Assembly (NCBI GenBank): GCA_905147135.1
Contig: LR990039.1
Location: 33,725,708 to 33,789,707, forward strand
DNA: 64,000 bases
DNA from: Blastobasis lacticolella
Taxonomy: Eukaryota; Arthropoda; Insecta; Lepidoptera; Blastobasidae
Reading direction: 5' to 3'
Within the stretch, counting starts at the first letter, position 1. The number at the start of each line of letters is the position of its first letter. The translations under genes and the position numbers were made by a program. Shown here one piece after another: positions 183-56,700 of the stretch. The notes beneath the pieces are model-generated. The model saw only the letters and a list, made by a program, of their open reading frames with translations, made no database searches and was not told the DNA's origin.

Positions 183-3100
183 CTGGGGACAAGCATTGAA
201 TAAATAATAGAATCATCTTGGCGTTAATTGCTCATAAGATAGTTAGTTAAGTTGTCTTAGATGACAAAAAGTACAAAAAAAAGTAAAAAATACAATGACC
301 TTAAAAAATGATCACTTAACCCACTCCAAGTTAATAAGTTAGGTAAGTAGATACAAATACAAATACTTTATTGGTAACAGTGTTACAAGTCAATTGATAA
401 TGAATTATACAAGTACGTATTACACTTTCATAAAAAAATTCAACATGTCATCTATTACATAAGTACATTACAGGTAACGCAGTTGTTGACGACCTGAGTG
501 GTTCAATGGTCAACATGCCGGTCTGCCACGCAAGAGGTCCCGGGTTCGATTCCCGGCCGGGCAGAAATTGAAATGATGAATTTTAATTTCTGTTACGGGT
601 CTGGGTGTTCTATGTATAATAAGTATGTATTTAAAAGTATTTAAGTAGTTTATCAGTTATCTAGCACCCATAGCACAAGCTTTGCTTAGTTTGGGGCTAG
701 ATGGCGCTGTGTGAATTTGTCCACGAATATTTATTTATTTTACTAATTACAATAATAATAACAAATAAAAATAGTCAGGTTTTAAGCCAACAAAATAAAT
801 TAAACTACACCTTTTAGTGTGTACGTTTTAAATTGACAAATGCGTCAAAGTCGTAAAAGGATTGATCAAGTAACCATTTTTTTTAGTTTAAATTTAAAAC
901 TATTGATGGCAGTTGCATTCTTGACGTGTTCCGGGAGTTTATTGAAGACTTTTTTTTTTTTTTTTTTTTTATTACAAACAATTCGGGCATTTGACCGCCA
1001 TCTCACCTGTTGGTAAGTGACGATGCGGCCGAAGATGAAGCATGCCCGTCTTGGAACAGCCTATTCACTCTAGCCTTAAAGGCATCCAGATTATATTGAT
1101 CAGGGAACACACCCGCAGGCAAAGCGTTCCATTCCTTAGCCGTACGCATTAAAAAGGTCGAGCCAAAGCGGTTCGTGCGGATGGCTGGAAGATCCACGAC
1201 ATAAGGATGAAGCGCTCGCCCGGATCGCGTTTCCCGATGGCGGAAAGGGGCCGGCGGAATGAGGTCGTGCAGCTGCTTCGCACACTCTCCGAAATGTAAT
1301 CTGTAGAAGACCGACAGACGCGCAACCCTACGCCGATGTTCGAGGCTCTGCAGCCTAGCCTTAATCAACCGCGGGTCACAAATTATCTTCTTTGCACGTT
1401 TTTCCACCGAATCCAAAGCCGCCAGTTGATATTTAGCTGATCCATCCCAAAGGTGGCAGCAGTACTCCATGCAGGACCGCACTTGTGCTTGATATAACTG
1501 AAGCAACTGCCTAGAAGTGAAGTACCGCCTAACCTTCGAGAGGATACCAAGTTTTTTTGCTGCAGTCTTTGCCTTGGATTCGATGTACTGACCGAAGTTG
1601 AGATTTGAAGATAACTCAACACCAAGAAGCTGTAGGTTGTCGGTAATTTCCACAGAAACATCCCGAAAAGTTGGAGTAAGATGGAATGGACTCCTTTTGG
1701 CGGAAAACAAACACGCCTGAGTTTTGGTTGCGTTGAACGCCACCAGATTGGCATCGCCCCAATCAGAAACTGCCTTGAGAGCTATGTCCAAACGATCAAC
1801 CATGGCCTCTCGACAAGACTGAATATCGTCCCTGTTGGCTTTTGCCTCTGACAGATATCTATCCGTTACCGTGCTGTCATCTGCATACCCAAACGTACCT
1901 GGTACAAGCAGATTGTTAATATGCAGCAGGAATAAAGTCGCGGACAGTACAGATCCCTGAGGAACTCCCGCGTCGATAGCCTGGAGATTAGACGAGTAGC
2001 CATCGATAACTACACGGATAGAACGTTCACTCAAAAAATCTGATATCCAGGTGCAAAAGCCAACAGGAATACCAAATGAAGGAAGCTTGCTTAGAAGGCA
2101 AGCATGCCAAACCCTGTCAAAGGCCTTAGAAATATCAAGAGACACAGCAAGAGCCTCGCCATGTCTCTCAATGGCCTCACTCCATAATTGTGTGGCATAC
2201 ACCAGAAGGTCCCCAGTAGACCGACCACGGCGGAATCCGTACTGGTGATCGCTGAGGAGATCGTTACCTTCAAGATGCGCAAGGAGTTTATTGTTCAGCG
2301 CACGTTCCATAATCTTACAGAGTATGGAAGTGACCGAAATAGGGCGGTAATTGGAAGGGTCGGCACGGACACGGGACAATAGGCCCCAAAACATACACCG
2401 ACCGTTCGGATTTTGCAAGCTTATGGAGCACTGGGAGCAGTTGGCCCTCGTCTTTGTTGCTTCTTAAGGCGCGCGACGATGCATGCTTCCGATTGAACAT
2501 AATCACATTCCGGTAAGTGAATATTACAATCTGATATATATGTCGCAGCCGGATGGTTAAATTAGCCAGTTCATTAAACGGCTAGCTTCTTATGTTGTTA
2601 TTTAATTGCAAATTTGCCAATTTCAAGAATTTTTTAAGTAATGTTTAAAGAACGAAATTGACCCGAGTTTACGATACTCCTCCAAATATTGTCACAATGC
2701 TAACTTAATCACAATAATCTCAAAAATAATAAAAGTTTGCATTAGGTTTTAATTCGGTTGGGTTAGATTAGTGTTGTGACAATGTATGAAGGAGCTCCAT
2801 AAACTCGGGGCAATATCGTTCGTTAGACGTAACTTTCAAAGCTCATTGATTCGGCAAATATTCAATAAAATAATTGCTTAAAAAGCTAGCCATTTAATTA
2901 ACCGGCTAATTTAACCATCCGGCTGCGACATATATACTCACATGGTAGTGTGAGTATTCCTGCAGGATTCCTCCTGGTCAGTGATGCCGACAACGGCACG
3001 TACCGCCCGCTTTTGGGCTACAAACGCGCGGCGCCACCCGGAGGCGCGCGCCCATAGTCCCGCCCCGTAAGACAGTACCGAGTGGACAGTGGCAAAATAA

Positions 3101-26700: not shown

Positions 26701-29700
26701 CAACATCTGATTGTGCCATTATCGTATTCAGAATTCATACTACCATTATCGTATTTAGTTTGGTGGTTTGTCTAACGGCCAGTTTCTAATACGTCAATCT
26801 ATTCATAATCTTCAATTAAAGTTCGCCATCCTTATCTATGGTGAGTTGTAGACAGAGACGGAATGTTAGTTGATAATTAACATTAACCAGCGTTTTAGAA
26901 ACCGGTTGTAAGACTAAGTGGATCATGTTAGTCTCATCATCATCATCATATCAGCCGAAAAACGCCCATCAGCTGGTACCTGCGATCTTTACCAGGTTGT
27001 CGGTCCACCTTGTCGGTCATGTTAGTCTGGTCCGATTAATGTTATTCAGCAATATAAACGACGACAAATGTCTTAAAGACTAACAAACTTGGGCCCCCGT
27101 AGACTTGAACGGGCATCAGTGTTTCCTTTTGAATATTTTCAACACTAAGATTTTCACTTGCCAAGTGTGGAGGTTGTAGCAAAACCCTGTACTAATGTTT
27201 AGGAGGTTCAAACCCAACAGTGGGCTGTTACGGACCGTGGATAATGATCGGCTTTCGCTTGCGATAGTGATTTCCGATACCAAAATGTGCTCGAACAATG
27301 AAAACACCGCATTAGCGTAGGAAGTTAACATGCATGTGCGATAGTTACTACTTCGTCTCTACTTTGGCTTTGCATTTGCGAATCTTGTTCTGTACTGTGC
27401 TATAAAGAGTTACTACGTTTGGACGTACAATATTTGTTGGGCGAATGATCGTACTTTAAAAAAAGTTGTGTACACAATCAGTTATTTATTAAAATAAATA
27501 ATTAATAAAAAAAACTGTGGAGAAAACAAAGGAAGTCATCCAGCTTCGCACGTATGTATCAGTCAGCGAGGCGCTGCACACCGATATGCACTAGACCGCG
27601 TTATAACTCACACACGTTAGCTTCGATCTAACCACCCGCGTCTCCCTCGGGGCTCGGAACAAATAAAAATCAAATGACTCTGTCTGTCTGCATTGAAGCC
27701 ACTAGACCAACTACTAACCGGATTCAGATTCTGTGTCGTCACGACCATTATGAGATTTTATGTTTCTGACACAAATATGTACAACCATGCCATGCGGCAA
27801 GATTGTAGAACTCTCTTCCGCATGAAATACGGGATAGCACTTCCTATTTTCATCTTCAAGAAACGTGTAAAAGAGCACTACCTTTCTCTATCTGTCTAAT
27901 ATACGTAAGTATGTGTATATGTATTTGTATGTATGTATGTATGTATGTATATGTATTTGTTTTCAATGTAGGTATATAGGTATGTATTTATTTATGTATT
28001 GTATTAGTTAAGCATCATTATTTTGTTTTTGCTACTGTGCACGTCTTTACTGCATTTAATTATCACGATCTCTCTGCTGTAGGCCTGCTGGAAGAAATTT
28101 CTTTATAGAAATAAGTTGGCCTGTTGTGTCTAATATGTTATGTTATATACTTTTTGTAACAATCTTGTGTACAATAAATGGTTAAATAATAAATAATAAT
28201 AAATAAACCATAGTTTAGTATGTTCCATATGGTGGACCTTTTACGTTCTGCCTAGCGCAGTCATCGCTGTCGTCCATCATCATCTCACTCGCAGTATGTC
28301 CGCTGCTGAACAAAGGCTGCACCAAGCTTTTTTTATGCTACTTAGACAGCCCACCTGGTAGTAAGCTTATGGATTTTTGTGATGTCAAAATAAATAATGT
28401 CTATTTCTATGTCTATCACTTAGATATTCATGCCGATCAGCTTTGTACCTCTGAAATCCGCCGACTCGCCACAACCTTTTCAAGGTCCGCTTATCTCATT
28501 AGGGGGAGGTGTTCCTTCGCGGTGACTAGTCTAATAGTAGAAGCAGTTTTTTTCTTTTCTGTAGTTTTGTCATCATCATCCTCATACTGGCGTCAATTCC
28601 GGTTGTTTTTAGCACGGCAACCGTAGGCCCAGGTTTCGCTTAAGTTTCTTTACTTTACTCAGGTTTTGTAGAGAAACCGGCCAAAGTGCATGTCCTTAGC
28701 ATGGCGGCCCTGGAAATATCGTATGAGGCCTCCTCCAATATTCTGGGGCCTTCTACAGTCGAAGTGTTTGGGGCGAAATGAGGAAATGGTTCGCCTGATG
28801 TATGTTTTGGATCTGTGCGATTGTCTGATGGCAGAATATGTATTCGAAAAACTATATTCGTAAATCGCTTTTTTCTATGCCTAAGCTTAAACGAATGAGT
28901 GTCACGCGGCTGTGCCCGTGTAATATTCATAACGTGTTATGCAGCCAATAAGGCAAAAAACTAAAAAAATTGCTTGCAAACATTTATGCTGCCAAGACAT
29001 TAATAACATTGGCTGGAATTTAAATTATAATTGATATTGAAATATGTTCGTGGAAGGTATATTATATTGGATGATGCGTTGCGAATTTGCCTAAATTTAA
29101 TTTGACGTAATGAATAATATAGGCCAGTCAAATCTTACATCTAAAACGTAAAACGCGATGTAATGCTGCATTTTTTGTATGTTATTTAGACCCCTTTGGA
29201 GAGTGTGGTAATAAAAGTCCCTAGTTTAGATAATTGGATACTGTGAACTATGCACCGAAGACAGAAAAGCTGACAGGGACACATCTGAAACTTTCCTAAC
29301 GCCTAGACCTCCATGTCCATCTCTTTCCAAGATGAATTATCAAGATTTATGTTATGAATTAAAATATAAGAATATGTTTCACTGTGTCGTTGACAACACC
29401 GCAAAACAGAACAACAGAATTAGAATATTTTCTTTAACGAAGTCCGAGAGGGAATAATCAAAACTACCTAGAAGGTGAAGCCACGCCTTGTCGACGACAT
29501 TGTAATAGCAATAGCGTCGAAAGCTGCAGAAATGGTACCAGCCCTCAGACAGCACTCTGGTATATACAGATCGCACTTAAGATTCAAGTCCACAACAATC
29601 ACCCTGAACTCGCGCATGAGGAGCTGTAAATCCTGTAAAACCATGTTCGCATCCCATTTCGTAGGATCCCGTCGTCTAAGTATTTCGTACTACCACACGT

Positions 29701-32700
29701 TAAATTTAGAATTTAGCTTCTTGATAGTCGCCTATTGCTGGCAGCCGACTACTGATTGCAAGAGGTAGCCTTTGTATATAAGATTGCTCGGCTTTTTGTA
29801 GCCGCATAAACTTACAAGCGGCCGGCAGCTTAGATCGTATTTGACCAAGCAAAGCGCCTCTATTGACGGAGTTGAATCCATTTTTTACGTCACCCTTCAG
29901 TACGACTTTAACACTATTACTTGATAGGAACGTTCTCATGGCGTGGACAGTGGCTTCGCAGTCACCTTTAGATCCAAAGTCGAGCTGGATAAGCTCGAAG
30001 TAATTTTTGGGCGGGGGGATGGAAAACCGGCTTCGGTAGGTACTCCCTACCGCAATAGGACGAATTTTTAGTTTTAGGCGCCATAAAGCGTACTTACTAA
30101 ATACTGTTCTACCGATCCTGACAGTGGTGTCGAGAATTAGTTTATAGAGGCTTGTTCCTTGAAGGCCCTAATGTCGTCGTCGTATGAATGTAGATTAAAG
30201 CCAATTTTCGATTTTCAATTTTGAATTTCGGTGTGAAAAATTCAATATTTTTAAAATCACATTCGCAACACCGAAAGAGTATGGACAAAAATAGGGAAAA
30301 TCAGCATAATGGATGAAAATATGAAACTTTTCATGCCGAAAATCAAAATTGAAAATAGTTTGAATCGAGGCGAGCGATTCAAAAATAGGGCCCCTGGTAT
30401 AGCGGCAGCGTGCTTGCGAGAACGATAACCAAGATTAAGCAACGTTCACCGATTCCGAGAACTGGATAGAGGACCGTTTCGTACATTGAGGCTAGTCCAA
30501 TTTCAGCACCGCGACGAGCTCGCCACTTGTTAGGTGCGCCTCCTAATACAATTGGCGAAGCGATGTTGAGCAATATCTTCCGCTGAACCCTGAGACTGAT
30601 AGAACGGTCTCGGAAGCTGATTGGCACCCTGTGGTGGTATTTTATTATTATTAAAACGTGATTTCTAACAAATTTTCTCTTTTCATAAGTGGTTATACCG
30701 ATATTTGGCTGAAAACAATTCCTTTGGTACCATTTACACAAGTAAGTCTATTCACAGAATTAATCAAAAAACCATTTTCAAGATTGTGAGCAAACTATTA
30801 GTCTCACTTAGTTTGTTTTGTACTTTAATGAAAGTAAATTAAATTTACTACAACTTTGTTTTAGTTACTTTTATCATACGACTAGCGATTTTATCAATAA
30901 TTTGCTCCGGACGGGAGCAATACTTATAAATGTGAATTTTCGGAAAAATGTACCATCTTTGAAGAGTCATAACTTGGTCACTGTACATTTTGTAGAGCTG
31001 CGTTTAGGCTTAAATAGTGGCAAACATAATGAACTTTAAAAGCCATCAGGCTTCATTGGTCGAAAAATGCATAGTTTTTGATTTTTAGACCAGAAAGTGA
31101 AAAAAGTCCCAAAATTTACGCAGGAAGCACAATTTTTTTTTTCTTGCAAAATGTAGTTTCACACTCTCTTAAGGGGTCCAAATAACATACCAAAAATGCA
31201 GCGTTACATCGCGCTTTGCGTTTTAGGGCCATTGTTTTGTAAGATTTGACTGGCCTAATATTGGAATGTACAAGAATGATGATCTGCGTAAATAAGAGTT
31301 TCTGAAGTTCATTGGTATTTGGCAATTATACGATTAAATATGAAATTATAATTCGGACGCTATTTTTCCAATAAAACATTGAATAAATAATCCTTTCTGT
31401 TTTTACTGGCAAGCAACAACATATGCTTACGTCGTTGTGATCCGTTTTGAAGGATCAAATAGTAGGTAGCAAGCACATTTCCTGGCTTGAGGTGTCACAG
31501 TGGCATCGCACCTGCGGTTCTGCATTTTTGTTACATGTACTCAGCATGTAAGTGTATGAATCCACACTTTGCCGTCAAGTGGGCTGTCTATTGAGTATCT
31601 AAAACCAATCAACTCAAAAGTTTTCATAATATTTCGATAGAAAGTTGGTCTAAGTCAAATTAAACATCTTGGCGTCAATATTCCGGTTGCGCTCGCGCGC
31701 TCGGGAGTCCACTTCGATTAAAATACAGAATTTGGCGGATTAAGTAATTACAGTATACTTTGTATGTATCCGACTGTCAATAGAATATTCAAAGCGAAAC
31801 AGTTGTTCGAGTACGCGTCGGAAACCAATATCGCTCGTTTAACGTTGCAGTTGCGTGTGCGCAGGAGCGTATCAATAAAATACAGAATAATGATAAAGAA
31901 CGTCCCGGAGTAAAAGATTCGGCAGCAAACCAGCTCTTTGGGTGAGACTCGTGACATCCACTGGGCTTGGTTGCTCAAAATACAAGTACAGACGACGGAA
32001 CCACCGATGAGGGCGACGCCATACTTAGTTCTGGCTAATATGACCTACATACACCCGTGCAGAAGCATTTCTGGCTGGTGTTGTACCTGAACGGAACGAA
32101 CGGAAAAACGTCCTGGAGTAAAAGATGATCTAGTGACTAGGATAGAGAAGGAATGCTGAGTTGATTGCATGGGAGGTGACTAACGAAAAATATATATGGC
32201 AGGGTTGTAAGGGGAACACGAGCCGTACATAACACAATCATACTTGAATCGAAGATATTTTAAAGAACGGTCAGGTCAAGAGTTCCTTATACCTATCGAC
32301 GAGCATGTATGGACAGTAAGATGTATGTGGAAGAAGAGAGAGGGATTTGTCAGAACAGGAGCAGAGGGAACAATGTGGTCTCTGCCTTACCCTTACGGGG
32401 AAAAAAAGCTTGACGTTACGTAGGTGTGTAGTACAATTTTGTTGCGAATGCTGCAGTGGAAATTTCGAGATAGCCCACCTTTGTAAGCCTAACACATTTT
32501 GTTACCGATGTAAGGCTTGACGTTATCATCATTCATCATCACGTCTTACTTCGTCTAACTCGTACACAATCAGGATTCAGAGAAAGTTGCGACGTATATA
32601 GTTCTATTACAAATTTAAAGCCTCTATCCACCACACCAAACTAACGAAACTTTCAGCTTGTCGGCGGATTATTTTTGTACACCACAAAATTGTACCTGTG

Positions 32701-38700: not shown

Positions 38701-41700
38701 TTTGTTTAGTTGAGTTTTATAAAATTTTAAGGCTTTATTTTTCGACATTGATTTTTATTGCCGGGAAGGCCGTAAACCACTTACGTGCTGTAAATTAAAA
38801 TAAAATGGTTTCTTTTTTATACAACTAAGGGGGCCAACAATGTTCCGGCCTGGCTGATGGTCTTGTTAATTATTGTTAGCTTTGTTTTTTTTGGTATTTA
38901 TTTTTATGTGAATAAAAATTGTGTGATGCAATTAGTTTTGGCGATTGATATTTACTTTTGTTGTATATGTTCAGTTATTGCTAAACATTTTATTGCTTCG
39001 TTCTAACAACTATCTAGTCTAAATTCGTTTGTAATTGTAATGTTTAGACTGTCTAATGAATCGATCTCCTGGACGACGGTAGCTGCTTTCGATTCCGGGC
39101 CATATGGCCGGCATTATAGACCGTTGCATTAGCAATACCACGATAGGCGCCTAGGAAACCATTTTAAAAATATATTTAGAAACTAAGATGAAAGAAAGTC
39201 ATTTTTAACACATAGCACACCACGACACAATAATAGTTACGTAATTGAAAGAAAGAAAGAAAGAAAATACATTTATTACACATAGCACACCACGACACAA
39301 TAACAGTTACAATTACAGACAACGGACACATTAACATTTAAAATATATTAATTAAGACAATATATTGTAGTCTCCCATGACACCGTCGGTGCCGCAGCGG
39401 CTAGCGCAAATGGTACCCACTCAGCATGTGCTGTGAGGCGCAAGAAACGACTCACAGCGCTGGTATTCTGTGGGCCCATTGTTTGGGTACGTCACGGGCG
39501 TTATACTAACTAAATAAAATAAATAAAAATAAATAAATACATAAAAATAAATAAAACATATGTAGGTAATAATTGCAAAAGGAAACATTAATAATAAGAA
39601 CATTTAAACAATGAGTAGCCTCCGATGCCACTGTTGGTGCCGCGGCGGCCATCATAAATGGTACCCACTCAGCATAATCTGTAAGGCGCATGAAGCGACT
39701 TACAACGCTGGTATTTCTGGGCCAATTTTTTAGCTCTGACTTTGTTCTAAGAGAAACGTGTTATGTACCCTTGTGGTGCTTTTTCAGATACAGCCTGATA
39801 ACTCAGACGCAGAAGGAGAGCGATAGAGAGAATAGAGAGATGCGCCAGGAGCCGCCGGAGGACCCGATACCGACGCCGCCGCCGCCGCCTCTGGGCTTCA
39901 AACTGCCTGGTAAGTGATAATTAACCTACTATGAATGTTATGATAATACTTGTCGGTGAGATAGGCAGAAGGCACACAGCGCGCTGGGTCTAGTCTGTAT
40001 AACAACGAATAACACCCTAACGACATTCCACGTAGTTCTAGGGTATATATATATGAGTACTAGGGTTTTCGCGAGTTTACCAGCGTTGAAGCGCCGATGT
40101 CCACTATTCACAATTTCCCTTTAAAATCTGTCCAATAATTTTCGAGTATTTGCTAGACTAGCGCGCGGCAATTGATTTTTGTCGGGATGTACAAAATGGA
40201 GAATATTCTTGCCCAGTAACTTTTAGCTTTCGAATTTTGAATTGATCTTATCAGTGGCGGACTAAGCCCGTCGGAGGCCCGGGGCGGCAAAGCTGAATGA
40301 GGTCCCCCAGTTCTTTTTAGTTACTAAACACACGCAGTGTGACTTATTTAAATTATTGGAGAGCGTAGCGAGGTCGAAATTTTTATAAATTTTAGCTAAA
40401 AAGAGTTGGTGTGAATATGATAAATTCAACATGAACCAATGAATGAGCGACCGCCGCGAGCATGGGATTATTGACATATTAGTTCTTAAAATGTGAGTGT
40501 AGTGTGTTAAGGTGTGAAAGCTGATCGCAGCGAGCTCCTATGTTTTAGAATTTTGGACTGTAGTAATAAACCAACGAATGAGCGAGCTCGAACTCGGAAT
40601 TATTTTATGTTCATAAAATCCAGATTGATCAGGCGACCCGGCGGCGGTTTAAGTGATTAAAATAATGAGCCAGCGAAGCTAGCTCAAAATTTCTGAAATA
40701 TTGACAGGCCCATTTGAATGGGCTAGAATATGAGCAACCGAAGCGAGTTCAAAAGTTTTTGTGGTTTTGCCATCTCACAGGCGCAATTTTAATTAAGTAA
40801 TGAGTGAGCGTGGAGCACCATAAGTTACCTTTTTTTAAAATAAAAACGTTATTAAATAAATAATAATATTCCTTTTCAAAATAGCTAACAGCACCATCGA
40901 CAGTTCTCAACTACTATCACTAATAGATATAAACGTACCAGCCAGGCAATGTAGATCCACCGCTCCTCTGCGACTTCCTATCGTATCGACAAATTATAGG
41001 CAGAATACCTTTGTACTGCGTGCGTCCTATAATAATGTTGTAAGGGATGTCGACGTTGATTTGTCTCACTAGTGCTCCGGCGGCAAGATAGGCCAGTCAA
41101 ATCTTACAACTAAAAGGCAAAACGCGATATAAGGCTGCATTTTTGATATGTTATTTAGACCCCTTAGGAGAGTGTGGAACAACATTACGAAAGCAAAAAA
41201 AAAATTGTGCTACGATTATGGGAATAACAATTAAACATATTATGAAAATACTAATCTGACATAAGACAAATTACAAATTTACAACTAACTAAATTAATAA
41301 AACAATCACCAATTTTGTCGTAGGTCCACAGTATTAGAACTATAAGGAATGCTGCCCAGAAGGCTGGCCGCATTGCCCCCCGTCCGACGTGGAAGCCAGC
41401 CCCATGGTCTTAAGTAATATCGACCAGGCGCTTAGCTAGCTCCCGAAATAAAGAGTGTGCGCATGGTCCCTAGAGTTCAAGGGTTTCCACGCCAAACGGC
41501 GTAAATATGTGGTTTTCACCAACACTTGCGTATTTGCGCCGTTTAACGCTTTCCGCTGAGGCGGCATCGGGCCGCATAACACGCCGTTACTGGAAGATGG
41601 AACTGTGCAAGGATATCGCTACACGTTGCGTCCCTGACCAAACGTCCCAGCTTCCAGGGCGTGAGTGTCATCCCTTCGGCCCTTTTACCGTCATCACGGG

Positions 41701-44700
41701 CCAAACCACCTGGCTCCAGCTTCGCGGGTGCTCCAGCGGAGGTGAAGGCCCGGCGGATGATATAGTGCATAGCGCGGTCGAGTAGTGTCCCAATATTTTT
41801 AGACGACATTGCCTGAAGTTAGATACCCGATTTACACTCGCCAGCAGCCAGCAAACGGGCGCGCTCTGCATGCTCATGCAGGTTGGTTGATGCGCTTAAA
41901 AGGTTGTTTCGCACCAATCTGCACCGAGGCTCGCCCCATAGCCGCTGGGAACAGGAATTTTTCGGGTTCCGGCCTCCGGAAAAGCTTACTCTGGTATATT
42001 CAGATCGCACTTCGAGATTCAAGTCCAAACCAATCACCCTGAACTCGCGCATGAGGAGCTGTGAATCTTGTAAAACCGTGTTCGCTTCACCTCGTAGGAT
42101 CGTCGACTACTGATTGCAAGAGGTAGCCTTTGTATATAAGATTGCTCGGGTTTTTGTAGCATTGCCGCATAAACTTATAAGCGGCCGGTAGCTTAGATCG
42201 TATTTGAGCAAGCAAAGCGCCTCTATTGATGGAGTTGAATCCATTTTACGTCACCCTCCAGTACGACTTCAACACTATTACTTTGGAGTAAAGTTCTCAT
42301 GGCGTTAACAACGGTGCAGTCACCTTTAGATCCAAAGTCGAGCTGGATATGCTGGAAGTAATTTGCTGGGCTGGGGGGTGGAGAACCTGCAACATAACTT
42401 AGCCGTCAGGCGTCGGTAGGTAGTCCCTACCGCAATAGGACGAATTAGTTTTAGGCGCCATAAAGCGTATTTACTGAGGACTGTTCTACGGAGCCTGCCA
42501 GTGGTGTCGAGAATTCGTTTATAGAGGCTTGATCCTTGAAGGCTCTAATGTCGTCGTCGTATGAATGTAGATACAACATTAAAGCCAAGTTATAATACAT
42601 TATTACGATTTCAATAGAACTTTAAAGTTCAGTAACCCATGGTAATTAAATGTGTAAAAGCTTAAAACTAACTTTCCAACGGCCCTGGGTTCCGTTTTCG
42701 AATCACTCGCCTCTATGCGAACGATTTTCAATATTGAATTTCTGCCCCGGTCTAGCGGCAGCGTGCTTGCGAGAACGATAATCAAGGTAAAGCAACGTTC
42801 ACCGAATCCGGGAAGTGGATAGAGGACCGTTTCGTACGTTGAGGCTAGTCCAATTTCAGCACCGCGACGAGCTCGCCACTTGTTAGGTGCGCCTCCTAAT
42901 ACAATTGGCGAAGCGATGTTGACAATATCTTCCGCTGCACCCTGAGACTGATAGAACGGTCTCGCGAGCTGATTGGCACCCTGTGATGGTAAATTATTAT
43001 TATTTAAACGTAATTTCTAACAAATTTTCTCTTAGAATGAGTGGTTATACTGATATTTGGCTGAAAACATTTCCTTTGGTATCATTCACACAAATTAGTA
43101 TTTACAGAATTCTTCAAAAACCTTTTTCAAGGTTGTGAGCTAACAATTAGTCTCACTTAGTTCGTTTTGTACTTTAATGAAAGCAAATTAAATGTACTAC
43201 AACTTTCCTTTAGTTACTTTTATCATAGGACTAGCGATTTTATCAATAATTTGCTCCGGACGGGAGCGAAACTGAAATTATGAATTTTCGGGAAAAATTG
43301 ACCATATTTGAACAGTCATAACTTGGTCACTATACATTTTGTAGAGCTGCGTTTGGAGCTTAAATAGTGGAAAATATAATAAACTTTAAAAGCGATTGAG
43401 TTTAATTTATCTAAAAATGTATAGTTTTCGATTGTTAGACCAAAAATTGAAAAAAGTCCCGAAATTTCGCAATTTCACGTATTACGCAGGAAGCACAATT
43501 TTTTTTCTTGCGATATGTAGTTTCACATTCTCTTAAGGGGTCTTAATAACATTCCACAAATGCAGCATTACATCGCGCTTTGCTTTTTAGGGCAATATTT
43601 TTGTAAGATTTGACTGGCCTAAAGAAGGCTTTTGGTTAATTCTAGTTTTGAAAATTGTCGTTTGAATTAGTTTCTTAACTGTTTCTTTTCGTTTGTAGTA
43701 GTTATGTTGGAGAAATACGTTCGGTTATAAGATGATGTAACCGATAAAAATTGAAACTGTGTTTTAATTTGTCTGTGAGAATCTCTAATTGGCTTTCTGA
43801 TACTTAAGCTTATTTCTAATCCATGGTACAACAGCTGTTGATTTTCAGAATATATAAATAAACAAATAAATAAGTAAGCGAGTAATTTTTAAGGCCTTGA
43901 TTTGGATTTGATCAAGGCAACATGGAGGCGTTTGAGACCCCCAGGACCAGGGTCCCGGGGCGGGCCGCCCCTTCCGCCCCCCTGTTAGTCCGCCGCTGGA
44001 CCTTATCGTTGCTACCCTTCAGCTGAGATATCAAAGTCAGGTCAACTGCATTGTCTTGCCCAGTAAATATCACACAAACGATTTTTTAATGTTAATTTAC
44101 TCCAGGCCCATGTAAAATTGTAATGGAATTGAAGATAATTTTTTTGGGTGATCTATTCTCTCGAGTTCATTCGTGTTTCCAACTCAATATTCGAGAACCA
44201 CCAACTGTGAATATCTACAATTATCAGTTCGCCAGGCGGTCACAGAAACTTACAAACTCCTTTGTGTGAATAATAGGTAAGTCAACTCTTTTCAATAGTT
44301 GACTTACCTCTTTTAATTGCAAAGAGATTGCAAAGAAATAGGTCAGTGGAGATTCCATATAAGCCGATTTGCGCCAATATTCTTCAAAGGATTATTAATT
44401 TTTCGCCTTCAACTTTAGAACTAATTAAAGAGAGTAAGCGTACTAAGGATTATCTGTTTGAAGAAAGAGTATTTGCAGACAAACAATTATAGGATATTAT
44501 TTGTGCACGTTTTGAATATATACTTTCTTAGCATATTCGTCCGATCGCCGATGACGTAATAAGCGCTACTACTCACCCCTAACATCGGTCCGACGCCTCA
44601 GATTTCGGTCCGGAACATGGCGCAAGCCGTTTGGCGGTGCGACTTAAGGGAGCGCCACATTAGGATGATGTGATATGACGTGCGTGATGCACGGGACATC

Positions 44701-47700
44701 AGCTCTCATAGAAAATGTGAAATTCAATTCTGTGGGGAAAATCGCAAGTTAGCAACACACTTGTCTTACGTGACGTCATTTTTGTAACCAAATCCCACTT
44801 CGTGTGCGTCAGAGCCCGTGTGGCGTGTAATGACGCTATCTGGTGCGTCACGCATCATTTGGCCTGCAGATATATGTCACACAGCCTACAAAGACATACA
44901 CAGACAGGCCCCGTATACACGAGTAACGGCTCTAGTGTAACGTCGTGTAAGATCACATCACAACTTCACACCTATTCAAACGCTTAAAGAAAAAATACAA
45001 TTTTTTTACAAAACAATATATAGGACTCTAGGGAATGCAATATCGGGATCCCGAAACACCGGGATCTCGCATACATTTTGCAGGACTAATCTCGGTCGAC
45101 AATTTTGTGGAATCCCGCTGGACTGGTTGGATTACAGAGAAGCGTTGTTGAGTGGACTGGCTGGCTAGGCCCTGGCTATACGATGCGAAGGCGCGGCAGA
45201 GAGAATAGGGATGACGACTGGGTCAACATTTTAAAATTATAATTGGTCTGACAGTTAAATTATAAAGATTTTAGGCACACATTTATTTATTTATCAAAAA
45301 TAAACCAATAAAAACTTATAAAGATAAAGCGTATCAAAGTTTTGGAGTAGGGGTTCCTGACGTCACTTCTGAATAAAATTTCACCTCCAGCGTGACGTAA
45401 CACAACATTTCAACGTTGTTAATTTTTATTGAGTCAGAAAAGAAAAAATAAGTGTACAACATTTTTTGATAATCTTACTATAAAATCATCTTGGCCTTAA
45501 TGCCCCGGTTGTGCTCTTGCGCACGAGGGCCCGGGGTCCGCCGTGACCATGATCCAGGATTTGGCAGGTCAGATAATTACAGTGGAGCGACTGCCATCCG
45601 ACCTCCATGACCCTGCTACCAGGGGAACCCGACCTCATTGGATAATGGTTACACATCCAGTCGCCTGAATGTGCAGGTTTCATCACTATGTTTTCCCTCA
45701 CCGTAAGAGAAAACAGTCATTGGTACATGGCCGGAGCGGGATTCGAACCCGGGACCTCTGGCTTACGAGTCGAATACTCTAGCCGCTCGGCCACAGACGC
45801 TCTTTTTGATAATCCTACTGACGCACTCAAACTATGACGGAAAAAACTAAAATTAAAACCACGAAAACGAGGTCTATAGGGTCATAATTACGATTGATTT
45901 CTGAGGTCTAAGTCCAAACTGCTAGATAAGGGCTAAGATGGTTCAGTGCTGCAAATGCCTGGATTGAAATTATCTCGCAGGATTGCATTCCCTAGATAGG
46001 ACAGTTTATGGTTGTTTCTTATTCATTTTTACTGTGAACTTTTTATACTAATAAAAGCTGTTTGTATAAATGTCCTAAATCTTTAGGGAGATGTTTATGT
46101 GGTATAATTTCTCCATGGAAAGACGGAACATGAATACGGGTTTTCGTTAGCCTACGAAGATAATAAATTTCAATTTTACACGTGATCTTTACAGTAGAAT
46201 AGAATAGAAAAATATTTAAACTCTTAGAAAACAAGGAACAAAAGGTTACATTTACAGTAGGGACTTGCATTTGAGCTAGCGATCGTTATAGCAGCCGTGT
46301 ATTTTTTGTAATTATTAACGATCTTTAGTTATTTTTTATACCACTAGGTCGCAAACAAGCTAAGCTTATTAATTGTCTGATGGAAAGCAGTTTACGTTGG
46401 TATTAGCCCCAGCTCCAGGAAAATGTAATATTCCATTTTCAGTATTATTCAGCACAAGTTAATCTATTTTAATCCTTGCTAATTGGCTGGCTATTTTCTA
46501 TTTCCGAGCACACAGGCCACCTAGAGTCCTAGACGGAGTTAATATTCGGAGTGCATGTCACGATTACGAAGCATGGCCTTACTGTGAAATTTAGTTCTGC
46601 GAGGGACATTGTTGGGATGGAACTTTATATCGCAAAGGGAGGAATGCACTTCAGACGTAAGACCTAAGATTTTGTTGTTGGGCGACTTGAAAAACTATTT
46701 CGGGCTTCATATAAAATATTTCTCTTAATTCGTCTTTAAAATTCGTCTTTAGACGATTGAAAGAGATATGAAATGTCCTTAATAAATAATTTTGAATTTT
46801 GAAAACTCTTAAGGAAATTCACTTGGTGTTTTGGGAAATGAATTAGATCCAGAAATTTATTTGATGATTTGGTTAGTGTTGCGGAAGGACCCAGCGAACT
46901 CATGGCAGTGTATTTGCTCACCTTGAAATTCGAATTAGCTTACTTTTTACCGCTGAGTCAAGTTGAATGAAAATTGTTTTTAGGGTTTCTACACGAAGGG
47001 TTAAAAACGAACTCTACTATAGTCTATTTTTTAACTATAAAGTACTGAGATAACTTACTCCATTCTTATTGGTTACAAGCCAGCGTTCACATTACCCACC
47101 CACTTCATCATCATCATCATCACAGCCCATAAACAGTCCACTGCAGGACTAAGGGCCTCTCCCACGAAAGGGGAGGTTATTGCCGTAATCTCCACGCTTG
47201 GCAGGCGGGTTGGAGATCGCAGTATTATAAATATAACAATGGAAAACGCTGCTGCCCATTTTCCAGCCTACGGAGACTTAGATTTATTCCTCTAAACATT
47301 AGTCGCCTTGTACGACACCCGCGAGTGTAAGGGGTTGGTGCTATTCTACTCTGCCGGACACCACACGGCCGGCAATCAATTGTATTGAAATTTTTGCATA
47401 TACTTGTAAGTTAGATGACAATACGATATTGTGGTATCAGTGAGCTGATCTGAAGATGGAGATGAAAGGTGGCCACAGAGTGTTTTAAACCCTCAAGGGG
47501 TGCCAAGTGGCTCTCAAGACTATTCAACCAGTCTCAGGGTTCCCCGTGAAAGACCTTGATCAACCTTGTTCGTTAATTCAGATATTATTAAAAAAAAATG
47601 GAATATATTTAATATCACTGATACCTGCGATTTACTTTTATAGTAACACAAAAGAAAGTCGGAGGTAACTTTATCCACGCCGTCAAAGCTGCCTTAGCGT

Positions 47701-50700: not shown

Positions 50701-53700
50701 CTCAGAGTTCCCAGCGATGACCAGGGCGGCTGGCCAGGGTTGACCTTGGTTAACCTCGCTTTGCCAATGATATTAGAAGGTTCGCCTATGGCGAGCTGGT
50801 TGCGGTGCTGAAGTTCGACTAGCCTTAATTTCACGAGAAAATCTGTAGACTTAAATATTATTAACTCAGTCATTTATTGACGGATTCCGAAAAATGTTCT
50901 ACTGGTTTGTTAGTTTTTATCTACATGTCATTAAATATGGCTCTCGCTATATCTCATTCGACTTATTTGTCAAAAAGTGACAAAACGCCCCATTGATGGC
51001 GTCGAGGAGTGCCAGTATCCAAAGTAACCACGGAGTAACCAAGGTTCCACTGGCCGTGTAGCGTCCGGCAGAGTTGGCCGTGTGGTGCCCGGAGAATAGC
51101 ACCAACCCCTTACACGCGTGGGTGTCGTGTCGTACAAGGCGACTAATGTTTTCTTTGTAAAAGAGCTAGTTTCCGTAGGCTGGAAAATGGGCAGCAACGT
51201 TTTCCGTTGTTATATTTATAACACTAAGATCTCCAACCCGGCTTAGGAAGATTATGGCAATAACCTCCCGTTTCGTGGGAGAGGCACTTAGTCCTGTAGT
51301 GGACTATTATGGACTGTGGTGATGAACCACGGATCCCAGTGATTACGATTCCTCTAGGCTCTAGATGGGATCGGAAAAGGGGGAAATTAAGGTGAATCTT
51401 GCCGTTAATTTCACAACGCAATAGGTCTAAGTGGGAGCGACGGTGGTCGAGCGGTTAGGGTATCCGACTCGTAACGAGAGGTACCAGGTTCGAATCCCAC
51501 TGCGGCCATGTACCAATGACTCTTTTCAGAGGTGTGTACATTAGGTGAATACTAACTGACGCTCTTACGGTGAGGGAAAACATAGTAACGAAACCTGTAA
51601 ATTTAGGCGACTGAATGTGTAACCATGATCAGGGTCAGGAGTAGCAGAACCAGTAGCAGGGTCATGGAGGTCAGATGGTAGTCGCTTCACTGTAACGATC
51701 CCAAATCCCACCAATGCTACATCCTGAATCATGGTCAAGGCGTACCCCGGGCCCTCGTGCGCGAGAGCACAACCGGGATATTAAGGCCAATATTGTTTTT
51801 GTTTTAATTTGTCAAAGCGAGATTTGTGGGGGCATTATTCCTGTGCGAGCGTACTCGTATTCTGGACGACCTTATCTTTTGCATAATACGCTCTATACAT
51901 CAAAGTTTATACACACCACTCAGCTTTAGTGTCAGTTTGTGAGTATGTAAGGTCAAAATGTGTTGGTGGCTTTGTTGGGTATTGCCCATTATTATATAGT
52001 GGGGGAACTTGTTAGTCTTTGACGTTTATGTGGACACAATGGATATAAGCACCAATACCAATACTTAGCTTTACATTTTTGATAGGAATCAACTCCTCCG
52101 TTGGCCATGTTGGATTTTATTTATTAATTTACAACACTTTATTGATTGTATGGCGGCCTTTTTGAAAAATGTGTATTTTATCAATATCACGATTTCCGTA
52201 TCACTTCGAGTGACAATCTTAGTGTTCCCCGCGGTTTTCACCGCGCGCAGTATGGATTTCTGTAAACATTTAACAATCCCGCGGGATTCCGGGTTCAAAA
52301 GTACCCTATAAGACATGGAGTAAGTGTTAACTGTTGGTGAAACAATTTTCAAAATCGGTTCAGTGATTTCGAAGACGTCCGACGTCCAAAGTAACAAACT
52401 TTTCGTCTTTAAAATGTTAGTAAACATAATTTACCCAACTATAAATTTACTTAACAAGTCTTTGCTTAACACTGAAATTTTTAGGAGAATGGGCGCTTTT
52501 ATAATTTATAACGTGACGATATTATCCTGGACGTCCATGATATAGGGGAGAGGTGGCATGAAAGGGACACGTATTAATAGGGATAAGTCAAATAAAGCAG
52601 CTAAACAATACTCTTTTAAATAGTATTGTGTTTCTGCCGGTGAGTAAGGTTTCCAGTGCTCCATGGGGTGGGGATTTGGGGAACCGTCTTTGGCAGTGGA
52701 GGGACATTTGTCTTTTTGCTGCCAGAGTAACGTGTTATAGAGGTGTGCAACGCATTGGCGATACTTTCGGTGTTGCTAATGTCTATAGGCAGTGGACCAC
52801 TTTCCATTCAGGTGGCCCGCTTGCCTGTTTGCGTACCGTTTGACATAATAAAAAACGGTAAAATAAGAATCGTCACGAGACTACAATACTTTTGTTCTAT
52901 GGCAACCCCAAAGCACAAACATTCGCACATAAAACATCACATTCCTGTCATATTAAATATGGCGACGGCATGAAACCTCGCCCTTATATTGTGGATGTCG
53001 ACGGTAGTATCGTCATGTTATTTATTTATTCATTCATTCTTTATACTACATTACAGTTAAAAACGAATGCGTCGCACAAATTAGTTTATAAATTGCAGCT
53101 ACCATATACAAATTACTTATGACTTAGGTAAAATGTTCAGATAACATTACCAATTCAAACAGATCGCAGTCTGGTACCTCACGCAGCAATTTATTCAGTT
53201 GGATGCTTGCTCTTACCAACGGAGGTTTAAAATTTAAAACAGTCCGCACAGATTTCACTTCGGTCAATCGGCGACTGCGGGGAAGCGTGTGCTTCCTGTC
53301 TATGGGAGACAGGAAACTTGCTCAGCCAAGTTTGAACAGTCTGATTCGCCTCGTAACAAACGAACTGCAGTCATAAGTAGATCAATACTACGTCTTACCT
53401 CTATGGAGTTTAAACTCAGAGTCTCTAGTAAAGGGGGTCCAGTTGCACTGGAAGCCGCGACACGGAGTTTTAACAATGCCACTGGATATAGTTAACTGTA
53501 GGTACATTTATTATTGTTACTCTGTTTTTTTTTTTAATTTTTTTTCTAACCTTTTTTTTTTTTTATGTACCTTAATTACCTTGTTTTTTTTTGGTACCTT
53601 ATTGTCGTGTCGTGGTGTCTACGTGTAATAAATGTCTTCTTTCTTTCTTAAAAACTTTACTGGGTAAAGAAATCGATAATACCCGCCCCGCACCTCTTCT

Positions 53701-56700
53701 TATAAAGAAATCGTAAGAAGGCTTTTTGTACTTTCTCGAGAAGTAGCTGTTTAATCGTCTCATGTGGGCTCCAGACTGTGGGAGCACTTTTAATTTTGCT
53801 CCTTACTAGCGAGGTATAAATGAGCTCTATTGCAGAGGGATCGAAAATAGTGTTACGAATTACATAGCCCAGATTACAATTCTCGTTGTCCCCCGTATGC
53901 TATCCCCCGAATGGGGGACAACGGCAATAATTTACCAGTTATTTTATTGAAAGTTTAATAATAAAACAACATGAAAAGTATGGAGGTGAGGGTCAACAAC
54001 TCTTAATTAAAATGTACTACCAAGGTTTTTAGATATAGACCTTGTATAATAAATTCAAAGTCGAATATAGAGTATAATTTTATCGTCCGATCGATCGCAG
54101 ACGCCCGTGTTGTACTAGGTGGCCTAATAGGCCAGTCAAATCTTACAAAAACGGGCCAAAACGCAAAGCGCGATGTAACGCTGCATTTTTGGTATGTTAT
54201 TTGGACCTCTTAAGAGAGTGTGAAACTGCATTTCGCAAGCAAAAAAAATTGTGCTCCCTTTTTCATTTACTGGTCTAAAAATCAAAAACTATGAATTTTT
54301 AGACGAATGAACCTTAATGGCTTTTAAAGTTTATTATATTTGCCACTATTTAAGCCCAAACGCAGCTCTACAAAATGTACAGTAACCAAGTTATGACCCT
54401 TCAAAAACCCTTCAGAGTCGTACTTACAACAAAATGTCAACGTAATACTAATTTAGATAACTTAGAATCTGGCATGTCAAAGTAATAATAATTTAGAATC
54501 CAAACAACATATAAAATGTCAAAATTAGTCCACTAAATTTGGAATTCAAAATGTCAATATCAGTAATACAATAATAAATAATTAATCGGTGAATTTTATT
54601 TAAGTATTTACCTTCTGAGACACCCGGCACTTGCGCGTGCGCCTGTGCCCAATGTCTCAGAATAGGCCAATCTGTCTTGTCACTGATGACCCTCAAGATG
54701 GTGTCCCCACTCCCCCGCACCCTGCGCAGAAGCGAAGCGATACGGTGCCGCACCACCGTGTGGAACCAATCCATGTGCGCTTGCGCAAACATCGCTGATG
54801 CACTGCAATAGCGCGGGAGCCCCAACAACATCCTGAAGGCGTCATTGTACTGTACTCGGAGAGCGTTGTATATCTCACCCACAAGCTACACGTGTACAGC
54901 GTTTGACAGAAGGCCTTAAAAAGGGTAATCTTTACCTCCACACTACAGCGCGCGAACCTGCGAGCCAGCATATTACAGCGGACTGCCGACGCTCTTACTT
55001 GTGCTAAGAGAAAATGTGATACAAATTACGTTTTAATAATATAAAACCATCACCGGGTGCCAATCAGCTCCCGAGATCGTTCTATTAGTCTCAGGGTCCA
55101 GCGTAGGGCTGCCAACTTTTTTTAGACCAAATATAGTATTTTCGGGTTAAGAAGCCATAAAAGTATAGTAGGTAGGGAATTAAACAAAAAATAAATAGTA
55201 GGATTTTTAAATAAAATGTACGTAACCTATAATTTTTCTTAAATGTATATATTCTGCTACATTGAGCTTCATAGCTGTTTTGTTTTATTTGACTTGAGTT
55301 TGACGTCACGTCATACAAATGTCAAGATTAACATAAGAAGTTAAGATCGTTCTAAAATATTCGATTTGCATCAGGAAATTTTTTCTTTTGAAGATCTTAT
55401 GGACGCGTTCCGTTTTGTGGTAAGTGGTAATGTTGTGCTAATTAAATACAGTAGTTTCGCCTACTATATTTTAATTTTAATTTATAGTAGGTAGACTCAT
55501 AATATAGTAGGACCTGGGTAGGGTTGGCAACCCTAGTCCAGCGCAAGATATTGCTTAATCTCGCTTCGCCAATTGCATTAAGTGGCGAGTTCGTCGCAGT
55601 GCTGAAATTCGACTAGCCTATAATATCCTAATGTAGAAGTTGCTTAGTTTTAAGTTTATCATGGGTTACTGAACTTTAAAGATCTATTGAAATCGTAATA
55701 ATGTATTTTTTGACATAACTTGGTTTTGATGTTGTATCTACCTGTTGTACAAACTGTTGGTGAACCAAAATAAATAAATAAATACGACGACGACATTAGG
55801 GCTTTCAAGAAACAAGCCTCTACCGACGCCGGTTTTCCACCCCCAGCCCAGCAAATAACTTCTAGCATATCCAGCTTGACTTTGGATCTAAAGGTGACTG
55901 CGAAGCCGCTGTCCACGCCATGAGAACTTTCCTCCAAAGTAATAGTGTTACCGTCAATCAAATCAAATCAAAATAATGTTACTTCATCGACAATAATGCC
56001 AAAATCGTTAAACGTGTGATTAGTAGGTTTGACTTGGATGAAACAAGTAATAATTAAATATTTAATTTTCGCGGGCGAGTAAACGGACACACGCCCATCC
56101 TTAGTAAAACTTTGTCAAGCGTGAGAAGTACGCCTGAGTGAGTACCACCGCCTTATCTATTTCTGCCGCTAAGCAACTATGCTTGCAGTGTTGTGTTCCG
56201 GTTTGAAGGATAAGGTAGTCAGCGAAATTACAGGCATGAGGCGTTTCATCTTAATCCTCACAGTGACAACGCACCTGCGGGTTTGAATTTTTGTTACCTA
56301 CAACCTAAATGTATGAATCTTAGATGTTATCGGCGACAGTTTCCACTAACCATCTGCTGTCTGCTCGCTTGTCACTAGAGTAGCATAAAAAATCCTTGGC
56401 AGTGGCCACGGGCAGACTGAGCGTCGAAACTACGCCCGAAGTTCTCGCGCCACCGTACGTTCACGTGACTTAATAAATCACTGTAAATTAATTAGGGCAA
56501 ATATCGTAAAATTACGGGACAATAATTTAGACGAACTAATTACCTTTCTTAAAAAAAGGACCATGTTAATATTCCTAGTAGTTCCGCTGATATTCGAATG
56601 GAAACAACTAAGGAGCAAAGTTATAAATACTTTTGGACCGATATAATGATGAGCAATCGTAATTTCCGCCGACATTAATTTAAAGGAAAGACTGAAGAAA

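What the first reader, a model, noticed from the sequence alone, without database searches (positions are those of the whole stretch)
29121..31256. A TIR-bounded repeat family whose only coding remnant is a YLDDG reverse transcriptase
Seen: inverted ends beginning AGGCCAGTCAAATCTTAC and continuing for about 100-130 bp, a possible 5-bp flank duplication (AATAT), and between them an RT-like relic with motif A ([11 protein letters not shown]), VGCQQ, YLDDG and LMREF..DLNLKC. Known: DNA elements with terminal inverted repeats normally encode DDE-type or similar transposases, and LINEs lack such ends. Inference: either a DNA transposon captured an RT-like gene and amplified with it, or an RT element uses inverted terminal repeats in an unfamiliar way. 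Three copies in one window share the arrangement, so it is not a single chance insertion.
Basis: partly seen in the sequence, partly recalled or inferred. Interest (0 to 1): 0.82.

Follow-up and report, generated by a model that had tools for sequence, protein, structure and literature searches.

The report
Moth DNA transposon carrying dead LINE
A few-kilobase moth-like DNA transposon with inverted ends spread through the genome carrying a broken piece of an ordinary R2-like retrotransposon, so the reverse transcriptase in it is a fossil passenger rather than the engine that moves it.

Summary
In detail: 29121-31256 is bounded by inverted ends and holds a YLDDG reverse-transcriptase (RT) relic. 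Genome-wide the terminal 18-mer occurs 443 times (control 0). The first 100 places give 40 adjacent pairs, 2.7-10.5 kb, median 3.13 kb. Less deleted copies have ~490-bp inverted repeats.

The RT does not drive the element. It is a 5'-truncated copy of an R2-like LINE (zinc finger, RT, CCHC, restriction-like endonuclease). Relatives with frames of ~970 aa exist in the same genome without inverted ends; a truncated one, L034, has a 12-bp duplication. All 13 long element copies compared share fatal deletions (GDPLGPAI motif, CCHC knuckle), so the gene was dead in their common ancestor and was copied as cargo. Copy L014 carries a second, different LINE inserted with a ~16-bp duplication, showing how such cargo arrives. 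No transposase with these ends and no LINE-free copy was found in limited searches; PIF/Harbinger is tentative.

The parts
29120..31257 (.). Copy A, both ends present, internally deleted (TAGGCC...GGCCTA)
29117..29119 (+). 3-bp target duplication ATA, left of copy A
31258..31260 (+). 3-bp target duplication ATA, right of copy A
29120..29208 (+). Left inverted repeat of A, outer ~88 bp only (inner part missing)
30775..31257 (-). Right inverted repeat of A (matches the first ~490 bp of L016 and L024 in reverse complement, 79%)
29208..30125 (-). LINE-derived relic in A: 5'-truncated RT, motif B deleted, frameshifts and a stop; limits approximate
41089..43621 (.). Copy B, both ends present; the 3-bp duplication does not fit (AGA/AAG)
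41219..42500 (-). LINE-derived relic in B: RT pieces plus a piece of the C-terminal endonuclease ([26 protein letters not shown]); limits approximate
54129..55956 (-). Copy C, right part only (right end at 54129), interrupted by other sequence; no left end found

Best explanation
A non-autonomous DNA transposon family of a lepidopteran-like genome (about 3.1 kb, inverted repeats about 490 bp, 3-bp target duplication), probably moved by a DDE transposase supplied in trans. Before the copies seen today spread, a founder copy carried a 5'-truncated insertion of an R2-like LINE (zinc finger-RT-CCHC-restriction-like endonuclease), lying antisense just inside the left repeat. The insert decayed, and the dead LINE was then copied along with the element to roughly 220 or more places (443 exact ends). 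Shown: the ends, the duplication, the shared lesions, the missing N-terminus, and relatives of the LINE without inverted ends. Inferred: movement by a transposase in trans, and its superfamily (PIF/Harbinger by end sequence and 3-bp duplication, tentative).
For: (1) The unit is repeated as a whole: 443 exact ends; 40 pairs among the first 100 places, 2.7-10.5 kb, median 3.13 kb (20 of the 100 ends unpaired). (2) 3-bp duplication in 12 of 16 complete copies, cross-locus control 0.93. (3) No LINE sequence N-terminal of residue 281 was found in the relic of any copy (tblastn; the only such match, in L014, is its second nested LINE). In the frame-aware alignment of 21 copies, 9 start at reference residues 54-57, L022 at 46, six at 77-124 and five at 430 or later. 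(4) 13 of 13 long copies share deletion of reference residues 203-210 (inside GDPLGPAI), nearly all of 317-336, and most of 516-566 (CCHC knuckle); 11 of 13 share each of the stops at 214, 307 and 501. (5) L030 and L031 have frames of 972 and 976 aa and, like L029 and L034, no inverted ends at E <= 1e-3; L034 is 5'-truncated with a 12-bp repeat at both sides. (6) Of 30 RT hits on contigs C1-C5, 19 lie within 8 kb of a listed element end, 18 of them in frames under 300 aa; the nineteenth (736 aa, L032) contains another, nested LINE. The other 11, nine of them with frames of 401 aa or more, lie at least 34 kb away. (7) Relic and left-repeat segments have diverged to a broadly similar degree between copies (84.1% and 88.0% mean identity). 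(8) L014 shows a second, different LINE inserted in the left repeat with a ~16-bp repeat and an A/T run. (9) The LINE family profile matches R2 proteins through RT, CCHC and endonuclease, E 6.6e-21.
Against: No transposase with these ends was found: five loci with PIF/Harbinger-type transposase that were read lack them, and none of 25 PF13359 hits on C1-C5 lies within 31 kb of a listed end; ends on the other contigs are not listed. No LINE-free copy turned up: none of the 40 scored hits (of 694 candidates) to a joined-flank query spans the junction. I saw no target duplication of the original LINE insertion (by eye). 4 of 16 copies do not show the 3-bp duplication. In this family the duplication lies outside an extra TA, whereas in the Harbinger-like locus L038 GGCC itself abuts TAT on both sides. 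With a single LINE sequence instead of a profile, R2 and retron/group II RTs score almost alike (E 8.9e-5 and 1.2e-4).
Confidence: 0.9

Rival explanations
1. A DNA transposon captured a working RT-endonuclease gene, used it for its own spread, and only later lost it in every copy.
For: The 17 complete copies read all carry LINE-derived sequence, and no LINE-free copy was found in 40 scored hits; the association is stable.
Against: The fatal deletions are shared by 13 of 13 long copies and the N-terminus is missing, so the gene was dead before these copies spread. The longest stop-free frame in 15 copies examined is 208 aa.
Confidence: 0.03
2. An RT element that uses inverted terminal repeats for its own replication (a new retroelement architecture).
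For: RT or LINE sequence lies between inverted ends in each complete copy read.
Against: Relatives with long frames lack inverted ends (L029, L030, L031, L034); L034 has a 12-bp duplication as LINEs do; on C1-C5 the other long RT frames lie 34 kb or more from any listed end; a constant 3-bp duplication is typical of some DDE transposons (stated for PIF/Harbinger in PMC2836001, passages read; otherwise recalled).
Confidence: 0.01
3. The RT relic is a set of independent nested insertions in separate copies.
For: Independent nested LINEs do occur in single copies (L014, L032).
Against: The relic has the same position and orientation in the copies aligned and shares lesions in 13 of 13 long copies.
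Confidence: 0.01
4. The carrier belongs to a superfamily other than PIF/Harbinger (another one with a 3-bp duplication).
For: No transposase with these ends found; the duplicated triplets are not restricted to TWA.
Against: The ends begin GGCCAGTCA as mPing primers do (PMC2836001, passages read); PIF/Harbinger-type transposases are common in the genome (152 matches).
Confidence: 0.4

Closest known systems
Non-autonomous PIF/Harbinger (Tourist-like) elements, e.g. rice mPing
   Same: Ends begin GGCCAGTCA; 3-bp target duplication; no transposase frame seen in the copies
   Different: About 3.1 kb rather than miniature, ~490-bp repeats, TA between duplication and GGCC, carries a LINE; transposase partner not identified
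R2-like non-LTR retrotransposons with restriction-like endonuclease (R2/CRE/NeSL group; group names recalled)
   Same: The relatives with long frames have zinc finger, RT, CCHC and endonuclease in R2 order; profile match to R2 proteins E 6.6e-21; 5' truncation and 12-16-bp duplications in the two cases read
   Different: Catalytic motif YLDDG; copies read lie at scattered sites. The relic in the window element is only a broken piece of one.
Nested transposable elements co-amplified by the outer element (recalled as a general kind)
   Same: One mobile element sits inside another and is copied with it
   Different: Here the nested combination is present in each of the 17 complete copies read, i.e. 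it seems to have founded the family

Membership tests
PIF/Harbinger DNA transposons | 3-bp target-site duplication | tested here: met
   12 of 16 complete copies, control 0.93; L035, not in that set, also fits (GTA/GTA, flanks)
PIF/Harbinger DNA transposons | Target preference TWA (recalled; PMC2836001 passages say usually TAA for mPing) | tested here: not met
   Triplets include ATA, TAT, TGA, AAA, CTA, GTG besides TAA and TTA
PIF/Harbinger DNA transposons | Harbinger DDE transposase (PF13359) in the element or in a partner with the same ends | tested here: inconclusive
   Longest frame in 15 copies is 208 aa (these frames were not scanned against PF13359); five of the 152 PF13359 matches' loci were read and lack these ends; 25 PF13359 hits on C1-C5 are over 31 kb from listed ends
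DNA transposon with terminal inverted repeats (general) | Inverted ends and constant-length duplication in many copies | tested here: met
R2-like RLE-type LINE (relatives L029-L034 except L032, not the window element) | RT followed by CCHC knuckle and restriction-like endonuclease | tested here: met
   Profile of 25 sequences aligns to R2 proteins over positions 231-911, E 6.6e-21; C780, C782, H792, C796 and D840, D856 invariant in 25 sequences
R2-like RLE-type LINE (relatives) | 5' truncation with target duplication, no inverted ends | tested here: met
   12-bp repeat at truncated L034, ~16-bp repeat at the LINE in L014; no inverted ends at L029, L030, L031, L034, only short matches (36-82 bp, 72-86%) at L033
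R2-like RLE-type LINE applied to the window element as a whole | Element ends coincide with LINE ends | tested here: not met
   LINE homology stops inside the inverted repeats on both sides
DIRS / Penelope-like retroelements | Tyrosine recombinase (DIRS) or GIY-YIG endonuclease (PLE) beside the RT (recalled) | tested here: not met
   Pfam scan of the LINE relatives: RVT_1 in 25 of 25, one PHD, neither of these domains at E <= 0.01

The most novel reading that the evidence does not exclude
Before the common ancestor of today's copies, a DNA transposon carried a working R2-like RT-endonuclease and used it, for instance to heal or copy itself; what we see is the dead descendant of such a hybrid.
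Probability: 0.02. Interest if true: 0.8.

Novelty: new member of a known kind. Interest (0 to 1): 0.22.

Why it matters
It removes an apparent contradiction (an RT between transposase-type ends): the case is a nested LINE inside the founder of a DNA-transposon family. One LINE insertion is marked in each complete copy read, which could serve to date the burst, and it warns that RT motifs between inverted repeats do not by themselves show a retroelement. Automated annotation could plausibly mislabel such a family.

Tried and rejected
Rejected: working captured RT; RT using inverted repeats; independent nested insertions; 5-bp duplication (2 of 16). Led nowhere: Pfam scan of four single frames (nothing above a cut-off); Rfam scan of window 28000-56000 (no match at E <= 0.5). 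Paper searches: searches found no paper; for only the listings were seen, except PMC2836001 (passages). No listing title described this family; no other search for it in print was made. The 8.35-kb copy L035 proved to be relic plus about 5 kb of other sequence, without a frame over 130 aa. No family tree of the RT was built; placement rests on profile matches and architecture.

Selection to keep in mind: the fetched copies are 20 of the 40 scored hits (of 700 candidates) to copy A's left end; 13 of these 20 have both ends in the stretch read. Added were A, B, L032 (found by RT) and L035 (found by end pairs). L014, L019, L023, L032 and L035 carry extra insertions. One search uses 16 complete copies (L035 not among them) and lengths 2, 3, 4, 5, 6 and 8 bp with offsets 0-2. 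The RT hits are 152 matches from 150 scored of 1174 candidates, list cut; one search uses the 30 places on C1-C5 (one overlapping second hit at C4:8501673 dropped), and two of its 19 'near' hits lie 5.5 and 7.5 kb from a single end. The count of 13 uses copies aligned from residue 130 or earlier to 600 or later. Of the 21 aligned, eight were left out: B by name, and A, L020, L011, L012, L025, L026 and L028 because they do not span that range. A has the motif-B deletion and the stop at 214; B and L020 have a deletion over the motif-B site; B, L025 and L028 have one over the CCHC site; L011, L012 and L026 do not cover these sites. In one search, 39 of the 40 hits cover only the left flank (34 end exactly at its last base, five at bases 141-153) and one covers only the right flank.
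Full report
What is there. The window lies at G000:C30:33725708-33789707 of a 577-Mb genome in 45 contigs. The LINE protein found in that genome has named relatives mainly in moths and butterflies, so a lepidopteran host is likely; no tool named the species. Copy A is 29120-31257 when the extra T and A are included. Its ends are inverted copies, and between them, on the minus strand, lies a broken RT. Copy B, 41089-43621, has both ends and a piece of the C-terminal endonuclease as well. Copy C has one end at 54129 and pieces up to about 55956.

The family. Twenty of the 40 scored genome hits to A's left end were read with 10 kb each; 13 of the 20 have both ends in the stretch. The copies are collinear over most of their length, with blocks at about 75-94% identity to copy L024. 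The inverted repeats are about 490 bp in less deleted copies. The exact terminal 18-mer occurs 220 times forward and 223 times reverse; the control (pattern read backwards) occurs 0 times. Among the first 100 places listed, 40 adjacent plus-minus pairs give lengths of 2.7 to 10.5 kb, median 3.13 kb; the other 20 ends are unpaired. Complete copies read elsewhere go down to 2.1 kb (A, L026). No miniature copy was seen.

Target duplication. For 16 complete copies, lengths of 2, 3, 4, 5, 6 and 8 bp at offsets 0-2 were tested against cross-locus pairs. Three bp outside TAGGCC...GGCCTA match in 12 of 16 (control 0.93); B, L012, L019 and L020 do not match. L035, read later, fits the triplet rule too (flanks).

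The RT is a piece of a LINE. A protein search gave 152 matches (150 of 1174 candidates scored), among them open frames of about 970 aa. Read in context, L030 (972 aa) and L031 (976 aa) encode a zinc-finger-like N-terminus, RT with DD in the YLDDG position, a CCHC knuckle and an endonuclease; L029 is the same with its C-terminus interrupted by an insertion, L034 is 5'-truncated, L033 ends differently. L029, L030, L031 and L034 show no inverted repeats in the stretch read; L033 shows only short ones. L029 and L030 are 99.7% identical over 3.2 kb. L034 has a 12-bp repeat at both sides. A profile of 25 relatives matches R2 retrotransposon proteins over RT, knuckle and endonuclease, E 6.6e-21, ahead of group II RTs at 1.9e-8; with one sequence alone the two were nearly level. 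One of 120 listed relatives is named after SLACS in its source record.

The RT is dead cargo. With the full LINE protein as query, the relic matches begin at LINE residue 281 or later in the copies examined; the one earlier match, in L014, belongs to its second nested LINE. In a frame-aware alignment of 21 copies to the LINE protein, 9 start at reference residues 54-57, L022 at 46, and the rest later. In the 13 copies that span most of the gene, all lack residues 203-210 of the reference (inside the GDPLGPAI motif of the RT), nearly all of 317-336 and most of 516-566 (the CCHC knuckle); 11 of 13 share each of three stops. In 25 LINE proteins the GDP residues and the knuckle C, C, H, C are invariant, so these are lesions, not a trait of the LINE family. 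The longest stop-free frame in 15 copies is 208 aa. Relic and left-repeat segments have diverged to a broadly similar degree between ten copies (mean identity 84.1%, 44 of 45 pairs usable, and 88.0%, 45 pairs), as expected of one unit without selection on the gene.

Where the RT genes lie. Of 30 RT hits on contigs C1 to C5, 19 lie within 8 kb of a listed element end. Eighteen of these have frames under 300 aa; the nineteenth, L032, owes its 736-aa frame mainly to another nested LINE. The other 11, nine of them with frames of 401 aa or more, lie 34 kb or more from any listed end. Hits beyond C5 were not compared, because only the first 100 of 443 ends were listed.

How cargo arrives. Copy L014 holds a second, different LINE of the same kind in its left repeat, in two frames of 600 and 281 aa, flanked by a repeated 16-mer at 871 and 4786, with a run of T on the side of its 3' end. 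This looks like an ordinary target-primed insertion into the transposon, present in one copy. The shared relic is best read as an older event of that sort in the founder copy.

What was not found. No LINE-free copy: a joined-flank query gave 40 scored hits of 694 candidates, none spanning the junction. No transposase partner: the genome has 152 PF13359 matches (150 of 358 candidates scored); five loci were read and none has these ends, and 25 hits on C1-C5 are all more than 31 kb from a listed end. The carrier's ends begin GGCCAGTCA like mPing's (primer sequences in PMC2836001, passages read), and 3 bp is the duplication length given there for PIF/Harbinger, but the triplets are not all TWA and a TA separates them from GGCC. 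I hold the superfamily at about 0.6.

Verdict. It is a new member of a known kind (nested elements copied together), mildly instructive, not a new mechanism.

Noticed in passing
L014:887-4785 (approximate): A second, different zinc finger-RT-endonuclease LINE (frames of 600 and 281 aa, YLDDG) inserted in the left repeat of a TIR element copy, flanked by a repeated 16-mer and with an A/T run.
   Followed up: partly
G000 contig C8: About half of the listed PIF/Harbinger-type transposase matches (PF13359; about 79 of roughly 150 by my count) lie on this one contig, many in open frames; could be a sex chromosome or other special region.
   Followed up: no
L036:810-6834: Near-perfect palindrome: two 2.1-kb arms, 99.6% identical, about 1.8 kb apart, each holding a PF13359 transposase match in a frame of about 380 aa.
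   Followed up: no
L029:3803-4885: A roughly 1.1-kb insertion in a LINE copy otherwise 99.7% identical to L030, with a short repeated stretch at the junctions.
   Followed up: no
window:33956-35118, 47489-47578, 50746-50829: Short matches to the internal spacer of the TIR element outside any copy; the spacer may itself contain another dispersed repeat.
   Followed up: partly
window:60665-62545 and 1003-2463 (-): Long RT frames (626 and 486 aa) with YADD motifs, of other LINE types.
   Followed up: no
L038:292-3003: A PF13359 transposase locus with 32-bp inverted ends beginning GGCCC and TAT on both sides: looks like an ordinary PIF/Harbinger element of the same genome.
   Followed up: partly
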